Source: Anaerovibrio sp. JC8 (lineage in GTDB: Bacteria > Bacillota > Negativicutes > Selenomonadales > Selenomonadaceae). Taken from it: a DNA stretch of 64,000 nt. The notes under the pieces were generated by a model, which worked only from the letters and a program-made list of their open reading frames with translations, did not search any database and was not told where the DNA came from. The stretch lies in contig NZ_ANBM01000006.1 in the NCBI RefSeq assembly GCF_002100115.1, forward strand, positions 1-64,000, given 5' to 3'. Position 1 is the first letter of the stretch, and every line of letters begins with the position of its first letter. The translations under genes and the position numbers were made by a program. Below, piece by piece: positions 33,904 to 45,437 of the stretch.

Positions 33904-34245
33904 ATGAACATTATTCAGGAATTAGAGAAAGAACAGCTCAGAAATGACATCCCAGATTTCCAGCAGGGTGACACTGTACGTTGCCATGTAAAGGTTGTCG
34001 AGGGTTCCCGTGAGCGTATCCAGGTATTCGAGGGCGTTGTTATTGCACGTTCCGGTGCTGGCGTTCGTGAGACTTTCACCGTTCGTCGTATTGCCAGCGG
34101 TGTTGGCGTAGAGCGTACTTTCCCAGTACACTCCCCAAGACTCGATAAGATTGAAGTTAAGCGTCGTGGTGTTGTTCGTCGCGCTAAGCTGTACTATCTC
34201 CGTAACCTCACTGGTAAGGCTGCTCGTATCCGCGAGAAGCGCTAA
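33904..34245 (+). CDS. rplS: 50S ribosomal protein L19
   Basis: Ribosomal protein at the 30S-50S interface, 113 residues, full length. ATG 33904 follows AGAGGAGG; the frame opens 38 codons earlier in the leader. [19 protein letters not shown] and [13 protein letters not shown] are typical of L19, as is the basic [17 protein letters not shown] end. It is expressed alone, between a promoter/leader and a terminator. Confidence 0.98.
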
Positions 34246-40093: not shown

Positions 40094-40801
40094 ATGGATG
40101 ATACGTTGCTGAATCTGGCCATAGTGCCGGGATTAGGTTTTTTGTATTATATTTATACTCTGGACAAGATCGAAAAAGAACCTCCGGAGCTGCTGATAAA
40201 GCTGTTTCTTTTTGGCGCAATCTGCTGCTTTCCGGCGGTGGTGGCAGAGGTGGCGGCCGGTGGTATCCTGACGGCAATGCTGGAGGAAGGCTCTGTGGAG
40301 TACGTCTTTCTTGAAGCCTTCCTGGGAGTTGCTTTGATGGAGGAGGGCTGCAAGCTTTTTGCCTTGAAGCGGCTGACCTGGACCAACCCTCATTTTAACT
40401 ACCGCTTTGATGCCATAGTTTATGCTGTCTGTGTCAGCATGGGCTTTGCAGTGCTGGAAAATATCTTCTATGTACTGGATGGCGGCCTTGAAACTGCTGT
40501 GGGCAGGGCATTTACATCAATTCCGGGGCATGGCATATTCGGTATTTTCATGGGCATTTATTACGGTCAGGCCAAGGAATATCTGCATCGTATGAACCGC
40601 ACTGTCAAGGATCGGAGCCTAAAGCTGGCCCTGATTGTGCCGACACTGCTGCATGGGTTCTATGATTTCTGCCTGCTGACAGAGGATGACGTCATGATAG
40701 GTGTATTCCTGGTTTTCCTTGTGGGACTCTATATACACGCCTTTTTTGACCGTCCGCCGCATGTCCAAGGAGGACCATCGAATATATTACTAATGGATTA
40801 A
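40094..40801 (+). CDS. PrsW-type intramembrane metalloprotease
   Basis: 235 residues, seven or eight helices. The family motifs are seen in order: LGVALMEEGCKLFAL (EExxK), FDAIVYAVCVSMGFAVLENI (GFAxxEN), FTSIPGHGIFG (HxxxG region) and LLHGFYDF. The Glu and His residues form the predicted metal site. PrsW of Bacillus starts degradation of the anti-sigma factor RsiW; here the substrate is unknown. It is co-transcribed with rmuC. Confidence 0.9.
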   Translation: MDDTLLNLAIVPGLGFLYYIYTLDKIEKEPPELLIKLFLFGAICCFPAVVAEVAAGGILTAMLEEGSVEYVFLEAFLGVALMEEGCKLFALKRLTWTNPHFNYRFDAIVYAVCVSMGFAVLENIFYVLDGGLETAVGRAFTSIPGHGIFGIFMGIYYGQAKEYLHRMNRTVKDRSLKLALIVPTLLHGFYDFCLLTEDDVMIGVFLVFLVGLYIHAFFDRPPHVQGGPSNILLMD

Positions 40802-40900: not shown

Positions 40901-40960
40901 TTGATTTTTTCGAGTAGGATATATACAATTACTGTAGGTAATTACAATTACCCACAGTAA
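40901..40960 (+). promoter_or_regulatory. Promoter with large palindromic operator before the recombinase gene
   Basis: TTGATT (40901-40906) and TACAAT (40924-40929) are 17 bp apart. TTACTGTAGGTAATT (40929-40943) and AATTACCCACAGTAA (40946-40960) form an inverted repeat with one mismatch and a 2-bp centre. It spans the expected start of transcription and touches the ribosome binding site GGAG at 40961. Confidence 0.7.
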
Positions 40961-40971
40961 GGAGTAAAGAT

Positions 40972-41910
40972 ATGATTTCTACTCATAAATTTATCACCAA
41001 CATAGATAGATACATCATTCCATGTATTGCCAAGGGAAAACCATCAAAGGATACCCTTGAGGCTTATCTGAAGCATATCCGTCTTTTTCTTAATTGGTGC
41101 CACCGGGATAACCGCCACCCACTGAACATGACGGAAATGCAGATCAGCATGTACTATCAGGAGCTGGTAGACAGAGGATACAAGCCCTTGACCATCCACA
41201 TAAAGATGGCTGCCGTAAAAGCCTTTTATCGGGCTGCCCTGCAGCAGGGGCTTATGTTTAATAATCCCTGCGACCATATCCAGACCCAGGGGGGTAATCC
41301 GCCAACCCTAAGATACTATCTTGATGTGGATCAGCTGCAGGTGGTTTGCAACACCTATATGGATGAGCCGGAGCCATTTATCCGGCACCGTAATACGCTG
41401 ATACTTTATCTCTTTAGCGTGGAAGGACTGCGTCCAATTGATATTTTCCGGCTTAATATGCAGGACATAGACTGGGAGCATTTGACCATAAGCATTGGAA
41501 CAAGCAGGCTGGAAAGAGAAGAAATATATCCCTGTGCAGAGACTATGGACATATTAAAGGATTATATAAAAAGCATTCCGGACAATATCACTGATATGCT
41601 GGAAAACCAGCTGGCACCTTTAATAATTTCCAATTCCCGAAATAATTATGGTGGCCGTCTGTCCCGTAACGGCATGCGGCTTATTATTAATACAGCTCTG
41701 GACAAGGCCGGGCTGAAAGTATCCGGTTCTTCAGCCAATCTCCTCAGAAACAGCTGTGGCACAAATCTTTTTAAGGCCACCAATGATATTAAGCTGGTTC
41801 AAAAAACATTGCGCCAGCAGAATGTAAGCTCAGCCTTAAAATTCGCAGCAGACAATAAAACCTTAAGCCAGCGGACCACATCAGTTATTGCTCCAAAGCG
41901 TAATAAATAG
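40972..41910 (+). CDS. Degenerate tyrosine recombinase/integrase, probably catalytically inactive
   Basis: 312 residues, complete length. An N-terminal SAM-like core-binding domain (about 10-95) and C-terminal catalytic fold are visible. Arg I is kept in EGLRPIDIFRL. HxLR reads NLLRN (His to Asn), the LGH motif reads LRQ (His to Gln), and the position of the Tyr nucleophile reads KFAA (Phe); no Tyr occurs after it. Three of the six catalytic positions are therefore missing. It may be a domesticated DNA-binding protein acting on the palindrome just upstream. No attachment sites or phage genes are nearby. Confidence 0.8.
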   Translation: MISTHKFITNIDRYIIPCIAKGKPSKDTLEAYLKHIRLFLNWCHRDNRHPLNMTEMQISMYYQELVDRGYKPLTIHIKMAAVKAFYRAALQQGLMFNNPCDHIQTQGGNPPTLRYYLDVDQLQVVCNTYMDEPEPFIRHRNTLILYLFSVEGLRPIDIFRLNMQDIDWEHLTISIGTSRLEREEIYPCAETMDILKDYIKSIPDNITDMLENQLAPLIISNSRNNYGGRLSRNGMRLIINTALDKAGLKVSGSSANLLRNSCGTNLFKATNDIKLVQKTLRQQNVSSALKFAADNKTLSQRTTSVIAPKRNK

Positions 41911-41929: not shown

Positions 41930-41997
41930 ACTATCTTTTATTTTACTTCCGATAAATTATCATTATCGGAAGTAAAAATGCAAAATTCACTATCTTT
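41930..41997. repeat. Perfect 15-bp palindrome between short direct repeats
   Basis: TTTTACTTCCGATAA (41941-41955) pairs with TTATCGGAAGTAAAA (41963-41977) around a 7-nt loop. ACTATCTTT occurs on both sides, at 41930-41938 and 41989-41997. No T run follows on the plus strand, so it is a poor terminator for the recombinase gene; it could be a small inserted palindrome or a binding site. Confidence 0.65.
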
Positions 41998-42176: not shown

Positions 42177-45100
42177 ATGAAACAGCATAGACCAATACAA
42201 AAATCTTTTCTGCTGGCCACCGGGCTGCTGCTGATAGCTGTGCAGCTTCTTTCCTATTGGATGATGCTTGCCCAGGCCAATCAGAATGAAACCACCCCCC
42301 AGCAAAAAACCGTCAGGGTAGCAACCTATGATGCAGATGAAATTTTCGTACTGGACACTGTTAATCACAAGAATAGCGGTTATGCCTATGAATATTTAGA
42401 AACCATTGCCAAATATGCCGGCTGGGATTTAAATTATGTGATTTATCCCGGCTTTACAGCCTGTATTGACGCTGTAAAAAAGGGCGAAGCGGATTTGGCC
42501 TATGATGTGAGCTACACCGAAGAACGGGCCCAGTATCTGGCATTTCCGAATGAGCCTATGGGGGTAGAAAACTACTATCTCTATTTCCTCGATACCAACA
42601 AAAATATTATTTCCGGCAATCTGGATACTCTGCAACATAAAAAAATCGGTGTTTCCAGAGGTACCAAGCAGATCAGTATTCTAAAGGAATGGCTTGCCAA
42701 GAACCATGTTGATGCGGAAATCGTGGAATATGCCAACAGCGCCGGACGCAGGGCGGCCCTTTGGGCTGGTGAAGTGGACCTGAATCTTATTGCCAACAGA
42801 TACAACAAGCCCCATTTTGTTGCCTTTGGCAGTATCGGTGAGGACAATTTCTATCTGGTAGTGAACAAGGCCCGGCCAGATATTCTGAAGGAGCTCAATA
42901 ATGCCCACAGAACCATGATGTCCATAAATCCATATTTCCTTACAGACATCAGCAAGCGTCATTTTGCCTATGCATCCATCAGAAAAAGCCTTACAGAGCC
43001 TGAATTAAAGTGGCTGGAGGATCATCCTGTCATTCGGGTAGGCTGTCTTATTGATGACCCGCCATTCACTTACACTGATCCTAAAACTCAGGAGATAAAA
43101 GGTGTTTATGTAGATACCCTGCATCGAATTTTTGATGTATTAAATATTGAAGACTATCATCTGGAATTTAAAATGTATTATTCCCAGGATGATATGCTGA
43201 TTGCCCTGCGAAATAATCAGATTGATCTTATTTCCCAATATTACTTCGATTATAATAAGGCTGCCATGGATAATGTCATTATATCCTCTGATATTTACGA
43301 TGCCCAGATAGGTATTGTCCGCAAGGCAGGCACTTCCTACAGTGATGCCTTTGAACGGCTGGCCTATGAAAAGAAACGTAACAAGGGCTATGCAGGGATA
43401 AAATATCCGGAGGCCACCTTTATTCCTTGCAAGAACCTTTTGGACTGCCTGGATGAGGTCAATAAGGGCAATGCCACTGGCGTAATCGGCCTCAGCTCTA
43501 CACTTGCTATATATACCCAGGCATATCCGGAGCTGGAATATACTCCTTTGATGGATACTGTCCCTATCGCCTTTGCCACCTCCAAGGACAACAAGTCTTT
43601 GATTACCATGCTGGACAAGGGCCGGGGACTCATCAACAACGGCGAAATTGATGCCATGCTGGCCGGTCATCAGCCTATGGCACCATTCTCCGTTCATAAA
43701 TTTATCTCCAATAATCTGGCGGCATGTATTTTGGGCCTTATAGCCCTTATGTCAGTTATTATGGTATTCCTGTTTATGACGGTAACCAACCGTCGGTTAA
43801 AGGCGAAGAACCAGCTCATTGACGATCAAAATACCGCCCTGAAGGAATATCAGGCCAAGCTTACCCAATCCCTGGAGGATGTGCAGAAGGCCGACAAGGC
43901 CAAGACCTCCTTCCTTTTCAATATGTCCCATGATATCCGCACACCAATGAATGCTATTATCGGCTTCACCGGATTATTGGAAAAAAATATTGATAACAAG
44001 GAGCTGGCCCTTAGCTATATTGACAAGATTCAGTCCTCCAATAATTTCCTCCTGTCCCTTATCAATAACGTACTGGAAATGGCCCGTATTGAAAGCGGCA
44101 AGGCAACTGTCGATGAATCCTATGCGGATATTAATCTTATGATGCCTGAAATCGGGGCAATTTTTGAACCGCAGATGAAGGAAAAAGGGCTTGATTTCAA
44201 ATGTTCACTTAATGTGGAGCATAATCATGTCATGCTGGACACCACAAAGGTCAGGGAAATACTTCTTAATCTCATCAGCAATGCTCTCAAATACACTCCA
44301 TCCGGAGGCAGTGTAACCTTTGCTGTTACAGAAGAGCCGTCTGCTGCTCCTGGTATGAGCACATATAAAGTGGTAGTTGCAGATACGGGTATTGGTATGC
44401 CTAAGGATTTCCTTGAAACTATCTTTGATGCCTTTACCCGGGAAAAGAATACCACCCAAAGCGGCGTTATCGGCACCGGCCTGGGCATGCACATAGTTAA
44501 AAAGCTGGTTGATTTGCTGGGTGGCACCATTAATATTGAAAGTGAGCTGGGAAAGGGTACCACCATCACTCTCCTTATGCCTACCAAGCTTGCTTCGGAG
44601 CATCTCCGCAAAATTACTGAACGGGAAAATAAGGAAATCGATACCTCGAAATTTAAGGGTATGCGCATTCTGCTGGCTGAAGACAATGAACTGAATGCAG
44701 AAATCGCCCAAACCATTCTGGAGGATCAGGGCTTTAAGGTTGAGCACGCCCATAATGGTGTTGAAGCCGTTGATATGCTGAACAGCTCTGAGCCTGGATA
44801 TTATGACCTTATACTTATGGATGTGCAAATGCCGCAGATGGATGGCTATAAAGCCACCATTACCATACGGGGCATGAAGGATCCTGTCCATTCCAGTATT
44901 CCTATCATTGCCATGACAGCCAATGCCTTTGACGAGGATAAGCGGGCTGCCCTGCTGGCAGGCATGAATGCCCACATTCCAAAGCCATTTGATGTACATA
45001 AGCTCTTTGGCACCATTGAAATGGTACTGAAGCACAAGGACTATTATATCCGCAGCCATGCAATGGACAGCTTCAGGGAAAAATATGAGGCTATGGGGCT

Positions 45101-45437
45101 GAAATGCGGTTACCTCATTTTCCGGCCGAACAAGATGGAAGAAACCATCTACACTGACGAAACCGTACTGGATATATTTGGCTGCTCCAGCTTTGAGGAT
45201 TTCACCAATTATGCCAAGGGTTCAGTAAAGAATATTGTTATCGTCAAAGAGCGGGAGGATGTATCCAGCAAGGTACATGAAATGGAAAGTGCCTCCTATA
45301 TTGGCAATTTTAAATTCAGCATTACCAGACAGGACGGGGAAACCCGAAATCTGGATTCCATCGGCTGTCGGGCCTATACCGGTGAAGAAATAGTTTGCTT
45401 CGTTTACGTGGTAGACATCACCAACACCAATCTGTAG
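42177..45437 (+). CDS. Hybrid sensor kinase with two periplasmic solute-binding domains (BvgS-like) and C-terminal PAS
   Basis: 1086 residues; ATG 42177 follows GGGAG. The N-terminal helix exports two type-3 solute-binding domains (about 45-265 and 290-510), the amino-acid-binding type. A helix near residue 515-537 crosses the membrane. HisKA has NMSHDIRTPMNA near residue 583; the ATPase ends with GTGLGMHIVKKL. The receiver has an Asp in LILMDVQMPQMDG near residue 881. A PAS-like domain of about 110 residues follows the receiver, an unusual end. It converges on a kinase of the same build. Confidence 0.9.
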   Translation: MKQHRPIQKSFLLATGLLLIAVQLLSYWMMLAQANQNETTPQQKTVRVATYDADEIFVLDTVNHKNSGYAYEYLETIAKYAGWDLNYVIYPGFTACIDAVKKGEADLAYDVSYTEERAQYLAFPNEPMGVENYYLYFLDTNKNIISGNLDTLQHKKIGVSRGTKQISILKEWLAKNHVDAEIVEYANSAGRRAALWAGEVDLNLIANRYNKPHFVAFGSIGEDNFYLVVNKARPDILKELNNAHRTMMSINPYFLTDISKRHFAYASIRKSLTEPELKWLEDHPVIRVGCLIDDPPFTYTDPKTQEIKGVYVDTLHRIFDVLNIEDYHLEFKMYYSQDDMLIALRNNQIDLISQYYFDYNKAAMDNVIISSDIYDAQIGIVRKAGTSYSDAFERLAYEKKRNKGYAGIKYPEATFIPCKNLLDCLDEVNKGNATGVIGLSSTLAIYTQAYPELEYTPLMDTVPIAFATSKDNKSLITMLDKGRGLINNGEIDAMLAGHQPMAPFSVHKFISNNLAACILGLIALMSVIMVFLFMTVTNRRLKAKNQLIDDQNTALKEYQAKLTQSLEDVQKADKAKTSFLFNMSHDIRTPMNAIIGFTGLLEKNIDNKELALSYIDKIQSSNNFLLSLINNVLEMARIESGKATVDESYADINLMMPEIGAIFEPQMKEKGLDFKCSLNVEHNHVMLDTTKVREILLNLISNALKYTPSGGSVTFAVTEEPSAAPGMSTYKVVVADTGIGMPKDFLETIFDAFTREKNTTQSGVIGTGLGMHIVKKLVDLLGGTINIESELGKGTTITLLMPTKLASEHLRKITERENKEIDTSKFKGMRILLAEDNELNAEIAQTILEDQGFKVEHAHNGVEAVDMLNSSEPGYYDLILMDVQMPQMDGYKATITIRGMKDPVHSSIPIIAMTANAFDEDKRAALLAGMNAHIPKPFDVHKLFGTIEMVLKHKDYYIRSHAMDSFREKYEAMGLKCGYLIFRPNKMEETIYTDETVLDIFGCSSFEDFTNYAKGSVKNIVIVKEREDVSSKVHEMESASYIGNFKFSITRQDGETRNLDSIGCRAYTGEEIVCFVYVVDITNTNL

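What the first reader, a model, noticed from the sequence alone, without database searches (positions are those of the whole stretch)
40901..41910. Catalytically dead tyrosine recombinase behind a 32-bp palindromic operator
The recombinase keeps length and fold but has Asn for the His of HxxR, Gln for the second His/Trp and Phe for the nucleophilic Tyr. The palindrome TTACTGTAGGTAATT-AC-AATTACCCACAGTAA covers the predicted transcription start. Recombinase arms are inverted repeats of this size, so the protein may bind its own promoter and work as a regulator. No phage or transposon genes surround it.
Basis: partly seen in the sequence, partly recalled or inferred. Interest (0 to 1): 0.62.

Follow-up and report, generated by a model that had tools for sequence, protein, structure and literature searches.

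The report
Dead Xer recombinase at replication terminus
A rumen bacterium (Anaerovibrio) keeps, at the point where replication of a small second chromosome ends, a DNA-recombining enzyme that has lost its cutting residues but still sits beside its old recombination site, while a different active enzyme with its own site appears to have taken over the cutting; it probably survives as a DNA-binding, self-regulating terminus protein.

Summary
The 312-aa tyrosine recombinase keeps both catalytic Arg but has Asn (HxxR His), Gln (His/Trp), Phe (Tyr) and no hairpin Lys. The 32-bp palindrome (40929-40960) is conserved in all six Anaerovibrio orthologues, occurs once per genome, and is absent from five gene-less congeners. 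The gene is under purifying selection (dN/dS about 0.07).

The context changes the meaning. Intact relatives throughout Selenomonadaceae carry the same 13+6+13 palindrome just upstream, usually at the GC-skew terminus: a gene-adjacent single-recombinase Xer/dif system resembling XerS/difSL. The window palindrome is therefore a descendant dif site. It lies within about 30 bp of the cumulative GC-skew maximum of a secondary replicon (Rep_3/ParA origin; sole rplS gene). A second dif-type palindrome follows the gene (41941-41977). Its motif co-occurs with a different, catalytically complete recombinase (Xer2): 43/54 Xer2+ versus 2/82 Xer2- genomes. Its centre differs from the chromosomal copy, as in Vibrio cholerae.

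Best reading: a former chromid Xer, displaced by Xer2, retained as a non-cutting terminus-site binder that probably autorepresses. Binding, repression and any further role are inferred.

The parts
40901..40929 (+). Predicted promoter TTGATT-17-TACAAT of the recombinase gene; second hexamer abuts the palindrome
   Evidence: no more promoter-like matches than in shuffles, so weak alone; aligned TATACT in five orthologues
40929..40960 (.). dif1/operator palindrome TTACTGTAGGTAA-TTACAA-TTACCCACAGTAA (13+6+13)
   Evidence: conserved in 6/6 orthologues, single copy per genome, same geometry and outer TTACTGT as sites of intact relatives; at skew maximum
40972..41910 (+). Catalytically degenerate Xer-type tyrosine recombinase, 312 aa
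   Evidence: dN/dS about 0.07
41941..41977 (.). Second dif-type palindrome TTTTACTTCCGATAA-ATTATCA-TTATCGGAAGTAAAA (dif2-type, candidate site of Xer2)
   Evidence: motif co-occurs with Xer2; it marks the skew maximum in the Xer2-only genome G034
40094..40801 (+). prsW, flanking gene; 4-fold-site GC skew positive in 6/6 species (side before the switch)
42177..45437 (+). Hybrid histidine kinase; 4-fold-site GC skew strongly negative in 6/6 species (side after the switch)
33904..34242 (+). rplS (ribosomal protein L19), the only copy found in the genome, on the same replicon

Best explanation
The gene is the descendant of a single-recombinase Xer whose dif site lies directly upstream of its gene. 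In Anaerovibrio it sits at the replication terminus of a chromid-like secondary replicon. Dimer resolution is probably done by a different, active recombinase (Xer2, G000:C7:96692-97705) acting at dif2 sites, one of which lies 3' of this gene. Freed from cutting, the old Xer lost Lys, His and, in some species, the nucleophilic Tyr, while its DNA-binding body and its palindrome stayed under selection. Most likely mechanism (inferred): protomers bind the two 13-bp arms without cleaving, cover the -10/+1 of their own promoter and repress it, and mark or organise the terminus. Shown by sequence: the residue losses, conservation of palindrome and protein, homology of the palindrome to sites of intact relatives, terminus position, Xer2/dif2 co-occurrence. 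Inferred: binding, autorepression, terminus role, replacement by Xer2, chromid circularity.
For: Catalytic losses in all six orthologues and otherwise clearly only in two other sampled lineages (G024, G028); all eight genomes also carry Xer2. dN/dS 0.05-0.10, like the neighbours. Palindrome conserved, single copy, gene-linked. Intact relatives have the same 13+6+13 site (TTACTGTG...CACAGTAA) upstream. Cumulative GC skew peaks at 40974 (site 40929-40960) and at 74100 in G015 (site 74094-74119), and close to the palindrome in the other four Anaerovibrio; the 4-fold-site skew changes sign between two same-strand flanking genes in 6/6. In four genomes with intact relatives the gene is 0.46-0.53 of a genome from dnaA. 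Secondary replicon: skew minimum with Rep_3 and ParA genes, ori-to-ter fraction 0.47 if G015:C3 (279,806 bp) is circular, sole rplS. dif2 motif in 43/54 Xer2+ and 2/82 Xer2- genomes; it lies at the skew maximum in G034.
Against: No binding or expression data. Only one strong site per genome, so no regulon is visible. Circularity of the replicon is inferred: no terminal overlap was found in G015:C3. Intact relatives also occur in some Xer2+ genomes (e.g. G035, G142), so Xer2 does not force loss. In g9 genomes the intact relative lies about 0.1 of a genome from dnaA, not at the terminus. The palindrome is not detectable in every relative (39 of 59 loci at p<=0.05). G024 and G028 lack a clear palindrome.
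Confidence: 0.6

Rival explanations
1. Accessory architectural factor: the dead Xer bound at its palindrome helps or controls Xer2 recombination at the neighbouring dif2-type site, as ArgR/PepA do at cer and psi.
For: dif2-type site lies about 1.0-1.1 kb from the palindrome in five of six species; both site types also share a terminus in G035.
Against: Known accessory sites are far closer (own knowledge); in G006 the dif2-type site is about 1.9 kb away and has a degenerate right arm; chromosomal dif2 sites in Xer2-only genomes lack this gene altogether.
Confidence: 0.2
2. Decaying relic with no function, kept by chance.
For: Catalytic residues lost; 10 of 16 genus genomes lack a detectable copy.
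Against: dN/dS 0.05-0.10 with synonymous sites near saturation; palindrome conserved amid diverged flanks; no stops in six genomes.
Confidence: 0.08
3. Still a recombinase: residual activity with atypical residues, or a hetero-tetramer in which another recombinase supplies catalysis on the same palindrome.
For: Both Arg kept in all; Tyr still present in three of six species.
Against: Nucleophile is Phe in three species including this one, HxxR His and Lys lost in all six; near-perfect symmetry of the arms argues for one binding protein; the GGAA/TTCC centre found in 22 of 27 sites of intact Selenomonadaceae relatives is found in none of the six, two centres being fully symmetric.
Confidence: 0.07

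Closest known systems
XerS/difSL of streptococci and lactococci (PMC5357621)
   Same: Single recombinase whose dif site lies immediately beside its gene
   Different: difSL is 31 bp with an 11-bp centre and unequal arms, here 13+6+13 with near-equal arms; only a weak match to the XerS model (36 bits against cut-off 267); the Anaerovibrio protein is catalytically degenerate
XerH/difH of Helicobacter/Campylobacter and archaeal XerA
   Same: Single-recombinase systems; among the nearest solved folds
   Different: About 15-20% identity; catalytically complete
Vibrio cholerae dif1/dif2 on two chromosomes (PMC2533119)
   Same: Two replicons with dif sites of divergent centres (here GTATAAA on the chromosome, ATTATCA/ATTTTAG/TTTATCA on the secondary replicon)
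   Different: One recombinase (Xer2) is implied instead of XerCD, with a dead Xer gene between two palindromes
Pseudomonas aeruginosa XerC, second non-catalytic role in pyocin control (PMC9431673)
   Same: Xer protein with a regulatory effect separable from catalysis (Y272F)
   Different: That XerC is an active enzyme in wild type
ALOG plant developmental regulators (PMC3537659)
   Same: DNA-binding domain of a tyrosine recombinase domesticated as a regulator
   Different: Eukaryotic, N-terminal DNA-binding domain only

Membership tests
Tyrosine recombinase / Phage_integrase fold (PF00589) | Profile match and fold | tested here: met
   46 bits against cut-off 27; fold matches XerA, XerH, Cre
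Active tyrosine recombinase | R-K-H-R-(H/W)-Y with nucleophilic Tyr | tested here: not met
   R-S-N-R-Q-F in the window; His and Lys lost in 6/6, Tyr in 3/6
XerC / XerD equivalogs | NCBIfam curated cut-off | tested here: not met
   92 and 89 bits against 335 and 330
Gene-adjacent single-Xer/dif system (XerS/difSL-like) | Single-copy inverted-repeat site beside the recombinase gene | tested here: met
Gene-adjacent single-Xer/dif system (XerS/difSL-like) | Site at the replication terminus | tested here: met
   Skew maximum in all six Anaerovibrio; intact relatives mostly, g9 genomes not
Gene-adjacent single-Xer/dif system (XerS/difSL-like) | Recombination at the site, FtsK dependent | not testable with these tools
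   Needs bench work; catalytic residues missing in Anaerovibrio
XerS (NF003462) | NCBIfam curated cut-off | tested here: not met
   36 bits against 267
Autorepressor | Binds operator over own promoter and lowers expression | not testable with these tools
   Only position and conservation are known
Chromid / secondary replicon | Plasmid-type origin and core gene on one replicon | tested here: met
   Rep_3 and ParA at the skew minimum, sole rplS
Chromid / secondary replicon | Closed circular sequence separate from the chromosome | tested here: inconclusive
   Skew of G015:C3 nearly closes and ter lies at 0.47, but no terminal overlap

The most novel reading that the evidence does not exclude
A pseudo-recombinase has been kept for long evolutionary time as a dedicated terminus-binding protein: a dead Xer on its former dif site that autoregulates and organises the terminus of a chromid, while a second single-recombinase Xer/dif system does the cutting about 1 kb away.
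Probability: 0.35. Interest if true: 0.75.

Novelty: new variant of a known kind. Interest (0 to 1): 0.6.

Why it matters
It is a natural separation-of-function case: an Xer and its site that stayed together, at the terminus, after catalysis was lost. It makes testable whether Xer proteins do something useful by binding dif without cutting it. It also exposes two single-recombinase dimer-resolution systems in Selenomonadaceae with explicit dif motifs, and a chromid in Anaerovibrio.

Tried and rejected
Phage, transposon or invertible-promoter module: no second copy of the palindrome in the genome, fixed locus between prsW and a kinase in six species. Housekeeping XerC/XerD: neither model is near its cut-off. 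Palindrome as mere terminator: on the minus strand it does score as terminator-like, but its conservation, gene linkage and shared family motif speak for a protein site. Second palindrome as terminator: the stem is flanked 5' by T and 3' by A, the reverse of a terminator, and the motif is shared with Xer2 genomes. Centre symmetry as proof of lost recombination: intact relatives in several Xer2+ genomes (G130, G141, G134, G035) also lack the GGAA centre, so it may reflect chromid divergence. Strict mutual exclusion of the two recombinases: not seen (18 of 136 genomes have both). Whether the switch is at the palindrome or at the dif2-type site 1 kb away cannot be decided from skew alone. The tree places the dead forms with 2 changes but on long branches, so the number of losses is uncertain. 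Literature searches for an Anaerovibrio chromid or a catalytically dead Xer at dif found no direct precedent in the held library.

Full report
Observation. ORF 40972-41910 (+, 312 aa) is a tyrosine recombinase by profile (PF00589) and predicted fold (mean pLDDT 84.6; best PDB matches XerA, Cre, IntI4, XerH). Against E. coli XerD its catalytic set reads R-S-N-R-Q-F instead of R-K-H-R-H-Y. Orthologues at 70-74% identity exist in five other Anaerovibrio genomes at the same locus, prsW-rec-kinase; all share the loss of Lys and the His->Asn change, and three of the six have Tyr rather than Phe. Gln for the third His is widespread in intact relatives and means little. The gene is under purifying selection (median dN/dS 0.072; neighbours 0.055-0.083).

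Palindrome. TTACTGTAGGTAATTACAATTACCCACAGTAA (40929-40960) is conserved in all six orthologues while surrounding intergenic DNA has diverged. With up to 3 mismatches it occurs once in each of the six genomes and in none of five congeners that lack the gene. In five orthologues it directly follows TATACT; in the window a weak promoter match ends at its first base.

Relatives. Sixty-three of 136 sampled genomes of the family carry the recombinase family, most with all catalytic residues. Upstream of the gene 39 of 59 loci have a palindrome stronger than expected from shuffles (p<=0.05). Many share geometry and motif with the window: 13-bp arms, 6-bp centre, TTACTGTG outer arms, e.g. G133 TTACTGTGTATAA-GGGGAA-TTATATACAGTAA and G147 TTACTGTGTTGTA-TTCCCG-TACAACACAGTAA. 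In three more distant families the palindrome CTTATAAGTATAATTATAAG occurs once per genome, and only in genomes of those families among 150 sampled. In four genomes (G022, G052, G076, G132) the gene lies 0.46-0.53 of a genome from dnaA, that is at the terminus, and in several others the GC skew switches there. This is the layout of a gene-adjacent single-Xer/dif system, as in XerS/difSL (PMC5357621). The g9 genomes are an exception (0.08-0.13 from dnaA).

Terminus of a second replicon. In the window's contig cumulative GC skew is maximal at base 40974; in A. lipolyticus LB2005 (G015) contig C3 at 74100, inside or next to the palindrome, and likewise in the other four. Four-fold sites show the switch in same-strand genes: prsW positive in 6/6, recombinase negative in 6/6 (-0.03 in the window), kinase -0.28 to -0.49 in 6/6. 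But A. lipolyticus has another skew maximum at G015:C6:188879, and dnaA of the window genome lies on another contig. G015:C3 has its skew minimum at 221688 between a Rep_3-type initiator and ParA; if circular, its 279,806 bp close in skew and put the terminus at 0.47. The window contig ends next to the same Rep_3 gene. The replicon holds the only rplS gene. It is therefore most likely a chromid. A relative of the recombinase lies near the skew switch of Selenomonas ruminantium pSRC1, a 285-kb plasmid carrying eno.

Second system. Thirty bases 3' of the gene is a second palindrome, CTTCCGATAA-ATTATCA-TTATCGGAAG (41946-41972; with extended arms 41941-41977). The motif is found in 43 of 54 genomes with a second, catalytically complete recombinase (Xer2; 93-95% conserved within the orthologue-bearing Anaerovibrio) and in 2 of 82 without it. 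In the Xer2-only complete genome G034 it lies 49 bp from the skew maximum, and in G001, G127, G128 and G130 within 0.3-2.4 kb. In Anaerovibrio the chromosomal copy has centre GTATAAA and the chromid copy ATTATCA, ATTTTAG or, with a degenerate arm, TTTATCA. Divergent centres on different replicons are what V. cholerae and other multi-chromosome Proteobacteria show (PMC2533119). That Xer2 acts on this motif is inferred from co-occurrence and position.

Interpretation. All eight clearly degenerate members (six Anaerovibrio, G024, G028) are in genomes with Xer2. I infer that Xer2 took over dimer resolution and the old Xer was released from cutting but kept as a DNA-binding protein on its old site, most simply as an autorepressor with a possible terminus role. 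The conserved GGAA/TTCC centre present in 22 of 27 sites of intact Selenomonadaceae relatives is absent in all six Anaerovibrio, and two of these centres are fully symmetric; but intact relatives in some Xer2+ genomes also lack it, so this is only suggestive. A non-catalytic regulatory role of a Xer protein has precedent in P. aeruginosa XerC (PMC9431673).

Limits. Binding, repression, Xer2 specificity and replicon circularity are untested; genomes sampled are related, so counts are not independent events.

Noticed in passing
G000:C7:96692-97705 (L098:693-1709) and sites CTTCCGATAA-N7-TTATCGGAAG: A second, catalytically complete ~338-aa recombinase (Xer2) with its own dif-type motif appears to be the chromosomal dimer-resolution system of many Selenomonadaceae.
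   Followed up: partly
G000:C6:147760-147786, 158252-158278 and nearby weaker copies: Several dif2-like sites with a degenerate right arm lie in a low-GC stretch over 100 kb from the terminus; related variants (centre GGTGGCT and similar) occur on other contigs of Anaerovibrio. Possibly mobile elements that exploit the Xer site.
   Followed up: no
G000:C2:153045-153071 and G000:C7:30-56: Two exact copies of the canonical chromosomal dif2; the first is in a stretch of uniform skew next to a low-GC island, the second at a contig end, suggesting a duplicated site around an inserted element.
   Followed up: partly
G000:C5:141295-142329: Second DnaA-like match (below the DnaA cut-off) in an 882-codon open frame.
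   Followed up: no
g9 genomes (G023, G064, G073, G074, G075): Intact relatives lie only about 0.1 of a genome from dnaA and not at the terminus; their role is unclear.
   Followed up: partly
NC_017078.1 (pSRC1), recombinase 183378-184382 (L270:19938-20942): A relative of the recombinase lies near the GC-skew switch of a 285-kb S. ruminantium plasmid carrying an enolase gene; no strong palindrome was found upstream with the settings used.
   Followed up: partly
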